Shown: piece after piece, positions 728 through 6,819 of the stretch | Layout: the number at the start of each line of letters is the position of its first letter | Position numbering within the stretch: the stretch's first letter is position 1 | From: Nocardioidaceae bacterium | GTDB lineage: Bacteria; Actinomycetota; Actinomycetes; Propionibacteriales; Nocardioidaceae | Direction: 5' to 3' | Assembly: GCA_030447865.1 (NCBI GenBank) | Contig: JAUJOD010000002.1 | Span: 1-64,000 of the forward strand | Length of the DNA stretch: 64,000 nucleotides | The notes under the pieces: model-generated | What the model saw: only the letters and a program-made list of their open reading frames with translations | Told to the model about the DNA's origin: nothing | The model's database searches: none | Program-made: the position numbers and the translations under genes

Positions 728-819
728 GATCGCGTCGATCAGGGATGCGCAGCACACCCCCGACCAACAAACGCACTTCCCTGTCCGCCTGGCCGCTTGA
801 ATACCCCACGGGCACGATG

Positions 820-843
820 GCGCGTCCTTATGCGCGTCCTTAT
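820..843. repeat. 12-bp perfect tandem duplication
   Basis: GCGCGTCCTTAT occurs twice in direct succession (820-831 and 832-843). The surrounding 728-947 has no convincing gene. It contains repeated GTGTCC/GGTGTCC words at about 849-870 and 920-938, and could be the arm-site remnant of an earlier integrative element ending at the att repeat at 948. That reading is inference. Confidence 0.5.
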
Positions 844-947: not shown

Positions 948-991
948 ACTGGGGGTCAAGGGGTCGCAGGTTCAAATCCTGTCAGCCCGAC
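948..991 (+). repeat. att repeat, left copy (tRNA-Pro 3' half)
   Basis: This 44-bp sequence is identical to 6776-6819. It contains the CTGGGGG anticodon loop (anticodon GGG), the variable loop, the T arm GCAGG-TTCAAAT-CCTGT, the acceptor 3' strand CAGCCCG and discriminator A. The 5' half of a tRNA is absent upstream: no CGGGCTG acceptor strand and no D arm. The copy is therefore not a functional tRNA gene. Normally one att copy restores the tRNA; here neither does. Confidence 0.85.
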
Positions 992-2170: not shown

Positions 2171-2374
2171 ATGACCAATTCGAACAAACTAAAGGAGAAT
2201 GTAGACCGCCTCTTTGAAGAGAAGGACGTAGTTAGTACGATGGAACTTGTCAATGCCATGGAACTGTGGGGCAGCTCATTCAATAGAGCTAGGAACATTA
2301 GGGTAAAGGCACGGCAACTTCAGATACCCATTAGGAATATTGGGTACTCTCGCTGGATTCGCAAGTCCCAGTAA
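2171..2374 (+). CDS. small basic protein, possible DNA-binding regulator
   Basis: The product has 67 residues, with ATG preceded by GGAAGGA at a good distance. The N-terminal half is acidic and helical (LKENVDRLFEEKDVVSTMELVNAM) and the C-terminal half strongly basic (RARNIRVKARQLQ...RWIRKSQ). The size and charge distribution suit a small DNA- or RNA-binding regulator or excisionase-like protein, but no family is recognised. It lies just before the structured leader of the replication-type gene. Confidence 0.6.
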   Translation: MTNSNKLKENVDRLFEEKDVVSTMELVNAMELWGSSFNRARNIRVKARQLQIPIRNIGYSRWIRKSQ

Positions 2375-2453: not shown

Positions 2454-2458
2454 AGATT

Positions 2459-2663
2459 GTGGCGGGGAAGTGCAGCGAACGTTATTTTCCTCGTTAGGCT
2501 TTCCCGCCGCACACGCAAGAATACCTCTTGTGTTGACCGGGAACAGAAGGAGACATTCTTAGTTACTCCATTTCAATGTGATGTTTAGGGATTTCCCCTG
2601 CTTTGGCACTCGGTCTGCCAGGCGGGGGTTTTTCTTGCTATCACATCAAAGAAATGGAGAGTA
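2459..2663 (+). promoter_or_regulatory. structured leader controlling the replication-type gene
   Basis: Four structures are visible. Stem 1 pairs GGCGGG (2461-2466) with CCCGCC (2503-2508). Stem 2 pairs ACGCAAGA-type bases at about 2512-2520 with TCTTGTGT at about 2526-2533. An intrinsic terminator lies at 2595-2633. A long-range stem pairs ACTCCATTTC plus AATGTGAT (2565-2582) with ATCACAT plus GAAATGGAG (2640-2659). The 3' strand of the last stem includes the GGAG ribosome binding site of the ATG at 2666, and the terminator sits in its loop. This resembles the attenuation/translation-blocking leaders of plasmid initiator genes, but no antisense RNA is demonstrated. Confidence 0.55.
2595..2633 (+). 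terminator. intrinsic terminator within the leader
   Basis: CCCC-T-GC is followed by GGC, a loop, GCC, then GC-GGGG and a T5 run (2629-2633). It precedes the replication-type gene by 32 bp, so it would attenuate that gene rather than end an upstream one. Confidence 0.6.
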
Positions 2664-2665
2664 GT

Positions 2666-3604
2666 ATGAACGAAAATAGTGCGGTTAACCGCTTCGATTG
2701 GGAAGATGCCATGTTGCAGGCAGCAATTAACAGGGATAGCAAGGTAATCACTTGGGCTTATAGTACCTACGGGTCAGGTAGGGTAGAGGATATCTTCCCT
2801 GGGATTAAAGATATTGCTGAGAAGACAGGATTTAGCAAGGACAAGGTGCGGAAAACAAGAGCGGCGCTGATAGAGAATGGCTGGCTCACGCCGTCTGGCA
2901 GGTACACGCCTAGCGGCACAGAGAAACTGTTTCTGACTATTGGTAACGCGGCTCCCGAGGGCTACTTGGCTAGCGGCACAAAGAGAGTCAGCCCGAAGAG
3001 CCTTGCAAACCTCAAGCCAGGTGCCAGGTACTTGTCTGGAAGATCGAGAGAATCCGATGAGAGGACTTCTCTGGAGAATCGAGAGAATGGACAGGGCGCG
3101 GGGGAGACTACTAGCAATGACCTGTCTGGAGAATCGAGAAGGACTTGTCTGGATATTCCAGAGGACTTCTCTGGAGAATCGAGAGACGAAACTCTCGAAT
3201 ATCAGGCTAGAACAACCAAGAACAACCAATTAGAACAACCAGCTAGAACAACCAGTGAAGAAAGAGACACATTTACAAGGTTAGAGGAAGAGTCCTCTAT
3301 ATCTAGGGACTTTGTGCGCGGCCCTGGCGGGCCGCGTGTAAATTCTCTTGAAAATAATGAGAATGAGGAATCTTCTCTAATGGAAAAACAGGTTTTTTCC
3401 TTAACAGAAGAAGGAGGGGTTTCACCTAATGAAAAAACAACAATACCCCGCCGTAGCACGTTAGGTGCTATGGCACTGTCCGAGAATGAGAGAACGTGGG
3501 CGCGGGAACGAAGACGAGAAGTAGACAAGATCATGCAGCGTGATCCTCTCTTGTCTAGGGAAGATGCAGAGGCAGTGTTGGATGAAATCCTGGATGAATG
3601 GTAA
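2666..3604 (+). CDS. replication-initiator-like winged-helix protein with embedded origin
   Basis: The product has 312 residues from ATG 2666, which has GGAG seven bases upstream; an earlier in-frame GCC-rich extension to 2603 overlaps the terminator and is unlikely. Residues about 1-95 form a winged-helix module (WAYSTYGSGRVEDIFPGIKD... TGFSKDKVRKTRAALIENGWL), of the type seen in phage and plasmid replication proteins. The middle (about 115-210) is low-complexity and hydrophilic because the DNA beneath it consists of iteron repeats. The C-terminus (about 270-312) is basic and acidic helical (ERTWARERRREVDKIMQRDP). The layout of an N-terminal DNA-binding domain with iterons inside the gene is that of lambda O-type initiators. 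Identity as an initiator is inference; the domain and repeats are seen. Confidence 0.6.
   Translation: MNENSAVNRFDWEDAMLQAAINRDSKVITWAYSTYGSGRVEDIFPGIKDIAEKTGFSKDKVRKTRAALIENGWLTPSGRYTPSGTEKLFLTIGNAAPEGYLASGTKRVSPKSLANLKPGARYLSGRSRESDERTSLENRENGQGAGETTSNDLSGESRRTCLDIPEDFSGESRDETLEYQARTTKNNQLEQPARTTSEERDTFTRLEEESSISRDFVRGPGGPRVNSLENNENEESSLMEKQVFSLTEEGGVSPNEKTTIPRRSTLGAMALSENERTWARERRREVDKIMQRDPLLSREDAEAVLDEILDEW
3035..3207. repeat. iteron array: TCTGGA-N3-TCGAGA dyads
   Basis: Imperfect 15-bp dyads lie at 3035-3049, 3070-3084, 3125-3139, 3148-3162 (TCTGGA-TAT-TCCAGA) and 3170-3184, with a degenerate sixth at 3193-3207. The last four are spaced 23, 22 and 23 bp, about two helical turns, so an initiator would bind on one face. 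This is the hallmark of theta-type iteron origins. The array lies entirely within the coding sequence of the replication-type gene. Confidence 0.7.
3209..3254. repeat. four AGAACAACCA direct repeats
   Basis: Exact AGAACAACCA copies are at 3209-3218, 3219-3228, 3232-3241 and 3245-3254, with spacing of 10, 13 and 13 bp. They directly follow the dyad iterons and precede AT-rich DNA (about 3255-3300 and 3340-3440) that could be the unwinding region. They may be DnaA-like or initiator secondary sites, or an unwinding-associated array. Confidence 0.65.
3317..3336. other. perfect 8-bp GC hairpin inside the replication-type gene
   Basis: CGCGGCCC-TGGC-GGGCCGCG is a perfect stem with a four-base loop, located 63 bp after the last direct repeat in otherwise AT-rich DNA. 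It could be a primosome or single-strand signal, or a fold delimiting the melted region. No T-run follows, so it is not an intrinsic terminator. Confidence 0.45.
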
Positions 3605-3664: not shown

Positions 3665-4025
3665 CTTATCCTAAATTGGTGTTCTTAATCTTTGTGTAAA
3701 TGTCATTCGTAAGTGTGAATGGATCGGATTCGTAGAGACTGGCTGCCGGGCAGCCGTGAGACCCTGCTGCACATGCTCAGATGCCTCTGCACGCCGTTGT
3801 ACGCCGATCTGAGCGCCTAGGAAATCTTCGACGGGTAGTTCTGCCACCTGGCAATAAATGAGCGTCTGAGCGCCTGCTCTCGTCGGTTGGCAGGCAGGCT
3901 GGCGGGTCGGCAGGACTGGCCTAGGTTCCGGGGGGAGTGCTGAGCCGCGCAACGCTCTGACCTGGCCTGTCATGGTTTCTAGAATAGCGTTGATAGAGTG
4001 GCTGCCCGACTGGCAGTCTGAGCGC

Positions 4026-4712
4026 ATGAAACTGGCTGCCTACATCAGAGTGTCCACAGACAAGCAAGCCGAGAAGGGCTTTGGGCTCGACGTGCAACGT
4101 CAGACCGTCAAGGCATGGGCAAAGGCGCACGGTCACCGCATCGTCTTATGGACGTGTGACGAAGGTGTCTCAGGCACTCGTGACGCTGCCGACCGTCCGG
4201 GACTCACAGCCGCGTTGCAAGCGCTCCAGGAGGGCGCTGAGGGTTTGGTAGTGCCACGCCTTGACCGCCTCGCAAGGAGCCTGAGCGTTCAAGAGGCGGC
4301 GTTGGCGCACGCTTGGAGAAGCGGTGCCGTCGTGTTCAGTTGCGATACCGGCGAGGTACTGGCAGACAGTCCAGATGACCCCATGAGAACCGCTTTAAGA
4401 CAAATGATGGGGGTGTTTTCGCAGCTGGAACGGTCGATGCTCTCAGCGAGGATGCGAGCAGGTCGGCGGATGAAAGCGGAGCAGGGAGGTTATGCCTTTG
4501 GTAGCCCGCCGCTTGGATACCGGGCGCACGATGGCAGCCTTGTGGCTGACGATCAGGAGCAGGCGACCCTAGAGCGCATTAGGCAACTGAGGGCAGAGGG
4601 CAACAGCCTACGCCAGATTTGCGCGGCGCTAGAGAATGAAGGGCACAAGCCCAAGCGTTCAACGAAGTGGCATCCACAAAGTCTGGCAGCAATCTTGAAG
4701 CGTGCCAGTTAA
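4026..4712 (+). CDS. serine recombinase, resolvase/invertase type
   Basis: The product has 228 residues from the ATG at 4026, where the resolvase fold begins at once (MKLAAYIRVSTDKQ); the in-frame extension to 3972 adds unrelated residues. The catalytic Ser is Ser10 in RVST. The conserved Arg-Asp-Arg cluster is in VPRLDRLARS, and the long E helix follows (FSQLERSMLSARMRAGRR). The C-terminal 60 residues carry a short recombinase-like and helix-turn-helix segment (EGNSLRQICAALENEGHK). It is longer than classical resolvases (about 185) but far shorter than large serine integrases. A likely role is resolving multimers or cointegrates of the element; a second integration activity cannot be excluded. 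Confidence 0.85.
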   Translation: MKLAAYIRVSTDKQAEKGFGLDVQRQTVKAWAKAHGHRIVLWTCDEGVSGTRDAADRPGLTAALQALQEGAEGLVVPRLDRLARSLSVQEAALAHAWRSGAVVFSCDTGEVLADSPDDPMRTALRQMMGVFSQLERSMLSARMRAGRRMKAEQGGYAFGSPPLGYRAHDGSLVADDQEQATLERIRQLRAEGNSLRQICAALENEGHKPKRSTKWHPQSLAAILKRAS

Positions 4713-5469: not shown

Positions 5470-6540
5470 TTATATCATTTGGTCTCTGATTATGTTCGTG
5501 TTCAGTGTCTCTAGAATTGCGGCATCGTCAGTTGGGAACATGTGCCCGTAACGGTCGACAGTAAATGTCGAGGATGAGTGCCCCGCCCATGTTCTAATTC
5601 GCACAAGGTCTACCCCCGCCCTTATCCACATGCTGACCGCCGTATGGCGTAGGTCATGCACGCGGACCCCTGACAGTCCCGCCTTAGCGAGTGCAGGCTT
5701 ATAGTAACGCTGCGACCAAGAGCGAGAACGTAAAATCCCACCCTGGGCACCCTCAAAGACATATTCTTTACCGGGATACGTAGCCATGTGACTATTAAGT
5801 TCCTGCATGACAAATGCAGGCAGGGGAATCATTCTACGACCAGCCCTAGTCTTTGGTGGGCTGATTTCCATTTGCCCGCCCACTTCTGCCGCTGTGGCAA
5901 TGATTGTTAGCGTGCTTCTCGTAGTGTCTACTTGGGCAGGTTTCAGACCGGCTGCCTCTCCAATTCTTAACCCGCCATATGCTAGAACTAGGATTAATGC
6001 TCTGTAGCGCGGCTCAATCGCCTCTGCCAGTGCCCTAATATCGGCGTGGTCTAGAGTCTTCATTTCTACTTGCTCGACTCTAGGTAGTGAAATGCCTACA
6101 CACGGGGAATCTCTGAGCATCTTTGCTGTGACAGCGGCACTTATGGCTTGCTGAAAGTCTTTGTAAATAATATGCACGCTGGCGGCAGCCAAGCCACTGC
6201 TAGACATTTTGTTGACCCATGTTTGCACTTGGGGTTGCCTAATGCTGTCCAGGCGCTTGCTACTCCATGCGGGCAGAATATGCGTTCGTGCAGTGCTAGC
6301 AGATTGAGCGAGGGTCGATGCTCGGAGGTTGACTCTGCTTTTTGTCCAGACCGCCCACCAGTCACCGAAGGTGGTACGACCATGCATGGGGTCTATGGCT
6401 CTGCCCGCCGCTGCGTCACCTTCAATCTGTGCCTTGAATGTCAGCGCATCCTTATACGCTTTGAATGTTCGCTGTCTTGAACCCCCCTCGACTCGCCACC
6501 GCACTACGTAGTTGCTTGGTCGCCGCTCTAGGCTTGCCAT
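5470..6540 (-). CDS. int: tyrosine site-specific integrase
   Basis: The product has 356 residues from ATG 6540 (MASLERRPSNYVVRW); a longer start at 6636 would place the arm-type repeats inside the gene. Residues 1-50 form an arm-binding-like AP2-type domain (SLERRPSNYVVRWRVEGG...). A SAM-like core-binding domain covers about 60-150. The catalytic domain has Arg in YGGLRIGEAAGL, Lys/Arg in the TRAGRRMIPLP hairpin, HxxR in VHDLRHTAVS, His in AGHSS and the nucleophile Tyr in DRYGHMFP. It sits next to the right att repeat, the usual place for an integrase using a tRNA 3' end. No excisionase is recognised; the 67-residue protein at 2171 is one candidate. Confidence 0.9.
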   Translation of the reverse strand: MASLERRPSNYVVRWRVEGGSRQRTFKAYKDALTFKAQIEGDAAAGRAIDPMHGRTTFGDWWAVWTKSRVNLRASTLAQSASTARTHILPAWSSKRLDSIRQPQVQTWVNKMSSSGLAAASVHIIYKDFQQAISAAVTAKMLRDSPCVGISLPRVEQVEMKTLDHADIRALAEAIEPRYRALILVLAYGGLRIGEAAGLKPAQVDTTRSTLTIIATAAEVGGQMEISPPKTRAGRRMIPLPAFVMQELNSHMATYPGKEYVFEGAQGGILRSRSWSQRYYKPALAKAGLSGVRVHDLRHTAVSMWIRAGVDLVRIRTWAGHSSSTFTVDRYGHMFPTDDAAILETLNTNIIRDQMI

Positions 6541-6560
6541 TGGTGCCTGCCCCTCTGGTC

Positions 6561-6637
6561 GCAACACACGGAGAGTCGCTAGTGTTGCTTGGTATTGTGC
6601 ACAACCTACACACGGTGCAACACGCTTGCAACACACG
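6561..6637. promoter_or_regulatory. cluster of GCAACAC repeats, candidate integrase arm sites
   Basis: GCAACAC occurs on the plus strand at 6561, 6617 and 6628 and inverted (GTGTTGC) at 6582-6588, between the integrase start and the right att core. One more copy lies inside the left end (1076). Their position and recurrence fit arm-type integrase sites, and they overlap the integrase promoter region, suggesting autoregulation. Confidence 0.5.
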
Positions 6638-6775: not shown

Positions 6776-6819
6776 ACTGGGGGTCAAGGGGTCGCAGGTT
6801 CAAATCCTGTCAGCCCGAC
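6776..6819 (+). repeat. att repeat, right copy (tRNA-Pro 3' half)
   Basis: It is identical to 948-991 over 44 bp. The flanks also match loosely for another 9 bp (pattern c-n-g-n-tgaaat). As in the left copy, the tRNA 5' half is missing upstream; the preceding sequence belongs to the element. Confidence 0.85.

What the first reader, a model, noticed from the sequence alone, without database searches (positions are those of the whole stretch)
3035..3440. Replication origin apparently embedded in the initiator-like gene of the tRNA-Pro element
Seen: five to six TCTGGA-N3-TCGAGA dyads, the last four at 23, 22 and 23 bp spacing, then four AGAACAACCA direct repeats, a perfect GC hairpin and AT-rich DNA, all inside the coding sequence of a winged-helix protein. 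Known: lambda O-type and some plasmid initiators have iterons inside their own gene. Inference: this small integrated element can replicate as a plasmid when excised. The repeats force a low-complexity protein linker.
Basis: partly seen in the sequence, partly recalled or inferred. Interest (0 to 1): 0.8.

Follow-up and report, generated by a model that had tools for sequence, protein, structure and literature searches.

The report
Replication origin inside its initiator gene
A small plasmid-like element parked in an actinobacterial chromosome appears to carry its replication start site inside the gene for its own replication-starting protein, as phage lambda does, and one of the repeated DNA words there recurs in the starter genes of many other phages.

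Summary
Five dyads TCTGGA-N3-TC(G/C)AGA (3035-3184), a degenerate inverted sixth (3193), four AGAACAACCA repeats (3209-3254), a GC hairpin (3317-3336) and 32% GC DNA lie inside the 312-codon gene 2666-3604. The repeats fall in different reading frames, so DNA-level selection explains them better than the protein. The protein matches O-like replication initiators at its winged helix; the repeat region is a predicted disordered linker. The same layout is in Rhodococcus plasmid pRA1, Nocardia plasmid pC1, lambda O, Arthrobacter phages and viral initiator genes (44 of 80 with in-gene repeats, against 2 of 80 control frames). I read it as a lambda-O-type in-gene origin of a small integrative plasmid. 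Excision, binding and replication are untested.

Unexpected: the second array. Units GAAC(C/A)A(T/C)C(A), often at spacings that break the reading frame, recur inside initiator genes that PHROGs files as O-like or DnaD-like: 34 of 50 loci in a completed viral scan for 10-11-bp spacing. Five literature searches bearing on it showed no description. It resembles the unwinding-element repeats of iteron plasmids, but is optional: lambda, pRA1 and pC1 lack it. The kind is known; this is a divergent variant.

The parts
948..991 (+). left 44-bp attachment repeat (3' part of tRNA-Pro GGG)
   Evidence: identical to 6776-6819 and to the 3' part of the intact tRNA-Pro on contig C8
1275..1916 (-). 213-aa ORF, function unknown
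   Evidence: no Pfam or NCBIfam match above a curated cut-off
2171..2374 (+). 67-aa ORF, function unknown
   Evidence: no match above a curated cut-off, PHROG matches only at E 0.21 and worse
2458..2665 (+). structured leader of the initiator gene: 5' hairpin 2458-2511; long stem 2566-2659 whose 3' arm (2651-2659) holds the GGAG ribosome site (2656-2659), with a GC hairpin and T run nested in it
   Evidence: RNA fold of 2458-2675: MFE -87.9, z -5.46, 0 of 200 shuffles as good; terminator-like 2614-2626; no Rfam match
2666..3604 (+). initiator (Rep) gene, 312 aa: winged-helix domain, disordered linker that holds the origin, C-terminal helical hairpin (273-311)
   Evidence: HTH_36; PHROG 270 replication initiation, 678 and 391 O-like; AF2 model
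3035..3184 (+). five dyad iterons TCTGGA-N3-TC(G/C)AGA at 3035, 3070, 3125, 3148, 3170
3193..3207 (-). sixth, degenerate inverted dyad
   Evidence: read directly; starts 23 bp after the fifth
3209..3254 (+). four direct repeats AGAACAACCA (3209, 3219, 3232, 3245), proposed unwinding-element repeats
   Evidence: similar arrays in viral initiator genes
3317..3336 (.). GC hairpin, 8-bp stem, 4-nt loop
3337..3440 (.). AT-rich stretch (32% GC)
3972..4712 (+). serine recombinase (resolvase type); plasmid matches include small actinobacterial plasmids; proposed multimer resolution
   Evidence: Pfam Resolvase 8.9e-31; plasmid matches
4667..4999 (+). small ORF, unknown
   Evidence: no family match
5470..6636 (-). 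tyrosine integrase
   Evidence: Pfam Phage_integrase 2.4e-17; PHROG 1
6776..6819 (+). right 44-bp attachment repeat

Best explanation
2666-3604 is the initiator gene of a 5.9-kb integrative plasmid-like element, and the origin lies inside it. Inferred mechanism: Rep dimers bind the dyad iterons 3035-3207 through the N-terminal winged helix. The resulting nucleoprotein complex strains and opens the adjacent DNA to the right. The AGAACAACCA array serves there as a strand-specific single-stranded landing site, ahead of the hairpin and AT-rich stretch. The C-terminal helical hairpin (or another host contact) then brings in the host helicase, since no lambda P-type gene was found next to it. A structured leader limits Rep synthesis, the serine recombinase resolves multimers, and the tyrosine integrase parks the element at tRNA-Pro 3' ends. 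Shown: the repeats, their independence of reading frame, the initiator match and the shared layout. Inferred: binding, melting, helicase loading, excision and copy control.
For: PHROG replication-initiation and O-like matches to the winged helix. Repeats in 2 and 3 reading frames, exact copies beyond all 2000 synonymous shuffles. The Rep genes of pRA1 (four 23-bp-spaced dyads, three of them perfect, one degenerate) and pC1 (three at 23 bp) carry their arrays just after the winged helix, and both plasmids also carry a recombinase-family gene. Arthrobacter phage initiators Polka, Cupello, Bumble and Bolt007 have 22-24-bp arrays at the same place. Lambda iterons lie at O-gene nt 349-433, starts 20/24/23 bp apart. 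Of 80 viral genes found by the C-terminal motif of such initiators, 44 have significant in-gene repeats against 2 of 80 control frames; 23 of the 44 have a period of 21-25 bp and 37 of the 44 start at gene nt 291-394. The AGAACAACCA array fits a weight matrix trained on other loci: in 71 hold-out genes, 22 have >=2 units at threshold 6, against 1 of 71 on the reverse strand, 0 of 71 codon-shuffled and 1 of 135 control frames (no shared 30-mer with the training loci). A gene beside a related integrase in the same bacterial family carries in-gene dyads at 21-bp lag (L298).
Against: No close relative of the Rep protein was found in plasmids, phages, viral or genome contigs, or sampled family/order/class genomes, so conservation of these exact dyads cannot be tested. 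The first two dyad gaps are irregular (35, 55 bp). The N-terminal AF2 model is low confidence and the best Foldseek E-value was 1.4. No helicase-loader gene was found. 36 of the 80 viral genes showed no significant in-gene repeat, and 15 of the 44 that did have a 14-16-bp period. The second array is absent from lambda, pRA1, pC1, Bumble, Bolt007, Parlo, PseuP_222, Pavtok and MseS-P1. No read-depth or circle data were available.
Confidence: 0.85

Rival explanations
1. The origin anatomy is a relic: Rep and the in-gene origin descend from an active replicon, but the element is now fixed in the chromosome and no longer excises or replicates.
For: Both att copies are tRNA fragments away from the intact tRNA-Pro, which sits on contig C8; a transposase ORF lies just outside; no sibling with the same Rep was found in the genomes sampled.
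Against: The Rep, integrase and serine recombinase frames are open and carry the expected domains; the att repeats are identical over 44 bp; five dyads and four array units show little or no decay.
Confidence: 0.12
2. The dyads are binding sites for something else: an operator for autoregulation, or res subsites for the serine recombinase encoded downstream.
For: Dyads of 15 bp could be repressor or recombinase sites; a serine recombinase gene starts about 370 bp downstream of the rep stop.
Against: They lie in mid-gene, not at the rep leader or just upstream of the recombinase gene; dyads at 22-23-bp phasing followed by an array are also seen in viral initiator genes, where I did not look for recombinases.
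Confidence: 0.05
3. The repeats are protein-level low-complexity repeats or chance.
For: The encoded segment is low-complexity and predicted disordered; loose array-like units arise from the peptide alone in synonymous shuffles (mean 2.1).
Against: Units are read in two (dyads) and three (array) frames; exact units never reached the observed number in 2000 synonymous or 2000 codon-order shuffles.
Confidence: 0.02

Closest known systems
Phage lambda O gene / ori-lambda
   Same: Initiator with N-terminal DNA-binding domain; inverted-repeat iterons about 20-24 bp apart in the middle of the gene; strand-asymmetric melting region on the 3' side (PMC7466680 and PMC5043065 passages).
   Different: Other iteron sequence; an AGAACAACCA array in place of the A-rich tract; no P-type loader gene found next to it; an integrative plasmid-like element, not a phage. 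The two proteins were not aligned directly.
Rep of Rhodococcus plasmid pRA1 and Nocardia plasmid pC1
   Same: Winged-helix Rep with dyads at 23-bp spacing in the gene just after the winged helix; a recombinase-family gene on the same small plasmid.
   Different: pRA1 Rep resembles the window Rep only over 58 residues at 33% identity (pC1 was not compared with it); other dyads; no integrase in the (incomplete) gene tables; no AGAACAACCA array.
Actinobacterial integrative and conjugative elements (AICEs)
   Same: Tyrosine integrase, tRNA 3' end as target (recalled for AICEs), own replication gene.
   Different: No RepAM (DUF3631), Prim-Pol or FtsK/SpoIIIE match among the six element ORFs scanned. 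AICE modules from PMC3218068 passages; RepSA has no Pfam model there and was not tested.
DUE 13-mers of iteron plasmids (oriV/TrfA of RK2)
   Same: Four short direct repeats beside the iterons; in the plasmid they are bound strand-specifically as single strands by Rep (PMC4081077, abstract and section list only).
   Different: Sequence rich in A and C rather than A and T; binding not tested here.

Membership tests
lambda O-type initiator with in-gene origin | initiator homology with an N-terminal winged helix | tested here: met
   PHROG 270 1.2e-6, O-like PHROGs 678 (7.3e-6) and 391 (4.1e-4); HTH_36. The match covers the N-terminal part only
lambda O-type initiator with in-gene origin | inverted-repeat iterons, about 20-24 bp apart, inside the initiator gene | tested here: met
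   lambda compared. Four of six dyads at 22-23 bp, the first two gaps 35 and 55 bp
lambda O-type initiator with in-gene origin | asymmetric or AT-rich melting region 3' of the iterons | tested here: met
   3208-3256 has 51% A, 10% T; 3337-3440 is 32% GC
lambda O-type initiator with in-gene origin | initiator binds the iterons and opens the origin | not testable with these tools
   needs gel shift and footprint
lambda O-type initiator with in-gene origin | adjacent P-type helicase loader (lambda itself) | tested here: not met
   the next + strand ORF of 100 aa or more is a serine recombinase and no other scanned element ORF is a loader; so it is O-type in architecture, not a lambda O/P module
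AICE | RepAM (PF12307) or Prim-Pol (PF09250) replication protein | tested here: not met
   no such Pfam match in six element ORFs
AICE | RepSA replication protein | not tested
   the model of PMC3218068 is not in Pfam
AICE | FtsK/SpoIIIE-type transfer protein | tested here: not met
   no such Pfam match in six element ORFs
PICI-type phage satellite | primase-rep module with the origin 3' of the rep gene, two iteron sets around an AT-rich region | tested here: not met
   origin repeats lie inside rep; no primase domain in six ORFs; definition from PMC6092414 passages
Iteron theta plasmid with strand-specific DUE repeats | direct repeats beside the iterons bound as single strands by Rep | not testable with these tools
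   four AGAACAACCA repeats present; binding not testable

The most novel reading that the evidence does not exclude
The array GAAC(C/A)A(T/C)C(A), every 10-13 bp, is a second origin element shared by replicons whose iterons differ completely and whose initiators PHROGs places in different families (O-like, DnaD-like) besides this orphan plasmid Rep. Because the motif stays while iterons and initiators change, it would be read by something common: a host replication factor, or a conserved single-strand-binding mode, that loads the helicase at phage and plasmid origins. (Probability lowered from 0.35 to 0.30 on rechecking: some DnaD-like proteins, such as L264 and L269, also match O-like profiles, so the families are not cleanly unrelated.)
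Probability: 0.3. Interest if true: 0.75.

Novelty: new variant of a known kind. Interest (0 to 1): 0.55.

Why it matters
It turns an orphan gene into a testable minimal replicon (about 1.1 kb) for an actinobacterium. More generally, the frame-breaking GAAC(C/A)A(T/C)C(A) array gives a sequence handle for finding origins inside initiator genes of uncharacterised phages and plasmids, and raises a direct question: what reads the part of the origin that stays the same while the initiator and its iterons change?

Tried and rejected
Led nowhere: close relatives of the Rep protein in plasmids, phages, viral contigs, genome contigs, and 341 family (E 1e-3), 391 order (E 1e-5) and 394 class genomes (E 1e-4), which gave only weak local matches (L007-L010 listed; L114 and L115 not opened). 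Relatives of the 213-aa ORF and of the integrase in contig collections. PDB by sequence (none; profile of phage relatives, best E 0.021) and by fold. The nucleotide search with the array gave short matches only, best a Vibrio phage gene annotated as hypothetical. Stretches L303 and L304 were fetched but not analysed. PMC3583192 (abstract and outline) concerns another plasmid type with iterons adjacent to, not in, rep.

Rejected: that pC1 and pRA1 carry the AGAACAACCA array; they do not. That the GC hairpin is a general part: of 28 viral loci with arrays 6 (4 distinct) gave p<=0.035 and 22 did not, nor did Polka or lambda; the window's gave p=0.005. That every triple GAACMAYC is an origin: 58 of 80 loci of the first scan had only 12- or 15-bp spacing, and 55 of these lay outside O-like genes.

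Full report
What was claimed and what is there. All are present at the stated place. The five exact dyads start at 3035, 3070, 3125, 3148 and 3170; a degenerate inverted sixth is at 3193. The five are read in two frames, and the four AGAACAACCA units in three frames. With the protein held fixed and synonymous codons shuffled, 2000 trials never gave more than 2 dyads or 2 exact units. With a tolerant matrix the shuffles gave 2.1 array-like units on average and up to 5, against 4, so the peptide alone accounts for loose units but not for exact copies. I conclude that the repeats are a DNA feature that the protein tolerates. A single-sequence AlphaFold model has pLDDT below 50 for residues 1-57 and nearly all of 89-269, and high confidence only on a C-terminal helical hairpin.

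What the protein is. Its winged helix matches PHROG 270 (replication initiation protein, 1.2e-6), PHROG 678 and 391 (replication initiation O-like, 7.3e-6 and 4.1e-4) and Pfam HTH_36 at its cut-off. Outside that domain it has no detected relative: none in plasmids or phages at E 0.01, none confirmed in viral or genome contigs with a search that reaches close relatives only, and weak local matches in 5 of 341, 1 of 391 (itself) and 3 of 394 sampled genomes, the window's own counted each time. NCBIfam gives nothing for it.

The same layout elsewhere. The serine recombinase of the element matches actinobacterial plasmids, several of them small. Opening one, Rhodococcus pRA1, showed a winged-helix gene with four dyads at exactly 23-bp spacing at gene nt 404-495, one of them degenerate. 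Its relative in Nocardia pC1 has three at 23 bp with a different sequence. Arthrobacter phages Polka, Cupello, Bumble and Bolt007 have 22-24-bp arrays starting at gene nt 316-378 (Bolt007 is significant with the 23-nt window, p=0.003, not with the 46-nt window, p=0.13). Lambda's annotated iterons lie at O-gene nt 349-433. In 80 viral genes found by the C-terminal motif of such phage initiators, 44 had significant in-gene tandem repeats against 2 of 80 control frames. Of the 44, 23 had a period of 21-25 bp, 15 of 14-16 bp and 6 others, and 37 started at nt 291-394. Two weak family relatives were less clear: G106 had 17-bp repeats and G045 none significant.

Sister elements. Of 335 family genomes, 51 (the window's own included) have an integrase match at E 1e-40. 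I opened the loci of the five best relatives (L294-L298). Two have an initiator-like gene with in-gene repeats beside the integrase: L298:13667-14308, with dyads of the form ATTCCYGTATYRGGAAT (read by eye) and a 21-bp lag (p=0.002; only a PHROG match at E 0.05), and L297:234-1043, O-like by PHROG 391 at 4.7e-7 with a 36-bp repeat for which I ran no null. In the other three I saw none among the ORFs listed; further flank fetched for two genomes was not analysed.

The second array. While reading the viral genes I saw that the iterons are often followed by units like TAGAACCACC on the gene strand. I tested this three ways. Arrays with at least one spacing not divisible by 3 lay in O-like genes in 16 of 22 loci; arrays with 12- or 15-bp spacing only, in 3 of 58 (Fisher 2e-9). 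Some of the 16 are related phages. Second, a scan limited to spacings of 10-11 bp ran to completion and gave 50 loci. In 24 the array lies in an O-like gene, always on the gene strand. PHROGs adds L206 and L249 (O-like / replication initiation), L250, L256, L264, L269 and L270 (DnaD-like), and L240 and L245, where the array is on the opposite strand of a DnaD-like or primosomal gene. L178 is the near-identical twin of L128, cut by a contig end. That makes 34 of 50. Of the other 16, six were scanned (five without PHROG match at 1e-3, one methyltransferase) and ten were not. Five pairs among the 50 are duplicates. Of 21 distinct upstream stretches of the O-like loci, 17 have an 18-27-bp repeat of at least 75% identity, against a shuffled rate of 1.3%. 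Third, a weight matrix from the 24 O-like loci was applied to 71 genes chosen by protein only and sharing no 30-mer with the training loci. At threshold 6, 22 of 71 have two or more units 9-16 bp apart, against 1 of 71 on the reverse strand, 0 of 71 codon-shuffled and 1 of 135 control frames; three or more units: 13 of 71 against 0, 0 and 1. At stricter thresholds the numbers fall (threshold 8: 12 of 71 with two, 5 with three; controls 0). The letters GAACMAYC in the matrix are imposed by the search pattern; what it added is mainly the A after them (60 of 72 units).

Named replicons. Arrays of three or more units are in the O genes of Bordetella phage PHB09 (4), Pseudomonas phages MD8 (4) and LESphi3 (3), the initiator genes of Arthrobacter phages Polka (4) and Cupello (4), and in the window (4): 6 of 16 examined. 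Nine others have at most one unit, lambda, pRA1 and pC1 included; a Vibrio phage gene annotated as hypothetical has two. Eight of the 16 were picked because they matched array-bearing proteins or the array itself, so this is no unbiased rate. The element is optional.

How it most likely works. In lambda, O binds inverted-repeat iterons in mid-gene and the neighbouring AT-rich tract is unwound (PMC7466680 passages); O binds as dimers and almost all purines of that tract lie in one strand (PMC5043065 passages). Plasmid Rep proteins can bind iterons and, strand-specifically, the single-stranded repeats of the unwinding element, and need all of them (PMC4081077 abstract and section headings). The window has dyads, then four short asymmetric repeats (51% A, 10% T), then a hairpin and AT-rich DNA. 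I infer the same order of events. Who loads the helicase is unknown; no loader gene was found among the ORFs scanned. That the array persists while iterons and initiators change suggests a common reader, which is the most novel reading. Against it, PHROG's O-like and DnaD-like families partly cross-match (L264, L269), so shared descent of the region is not excluded.

Control of Rep. The stretch 2458-2675 folds far better than chance (z -5.46). A stem of its 3' half covers the ribosome site GGAG at 2656-2659, with a GC hairpin and T run nested inside. This would fit RNA-based control of Rep, but no family matched and nothing tests it.

Setting. The two 44-bp att copies at 948 and 6776 are fragments of tRNA-Pro(GGG); no intact tRNA is in the window. 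The intact gene is on contig C8 beside an ORF that reads like a tyrosine integrase (by eye, not scanned). A 25-bp sequence next to that ORF recurs at window 819-843. I infer a tandem of two elements at one tRNA-Pro site broken by the assembly; the contig join was not shown (no overlap among the contig ends compared).

What is in print. Of nine library searches, five bore on this array and one of those used its letters; the other four concerned in-gene iterons and the plasmids. None showed the array in the listings or passages I saw. The MD8 paper mentions repeats within its O-like gene without giving a motif in the passages I saw (PMC8508860). The mycobacteriophage RepA paper found no repeats in the region it examined and proposes an origin just upstream of or within repA (PMC7157519 passages). 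The library holds open-licence papers only, so older or subscription work may describe it.

Noticed in passing
2458-2665: Strongly structured leader of the rep gene (z -5.46) with the ribosome site in a stem and a GC hairpin plus T run nested in it; looks like RNA control of initiator synthesis.
   Followed up: partly
819-843 and L013:1407-1431: 25-bp sequence shared by the left flank of the element and the integrase-like ORF region at the intact tRNA-Pro on contig C8; suggests tandem elements at one tRNA site split between contigs.
   Followed up: partly
39-671: IS240-type transposase (DDE) frame at the very start of the contig, perhaps the reason for the assembly break.
   Followed up: no
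L298:13667-14308: 214-aa gene beside a related integrase in another genome of the family, with dyads ATTCCYGTATYRGGAAT in the gene and no clear family match: perhaps another small replicon with an in-gene origin.
   Followed up: partly
L240:12757-13602 and L245:870-1700: The GAAC array lies on the opposite strand of a DnaD-like or primosomal gene in these two viral contigs, against the usual orientation.
   Followed up: no
L202:13496-14419: Protein without PHROG match carrying a GAACAACCACC array in mid-gene; possibly an undescribed initiator family.
   Followed up: no
window 3482-3598 (Rep residues 273-311): The confident C-terminal helical hairpin gave Foldseek matches to the small AROD domain of archaeal RPA (probability about 0.94, 39 columns, but E 1.6 and worse).
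   Followed up: no
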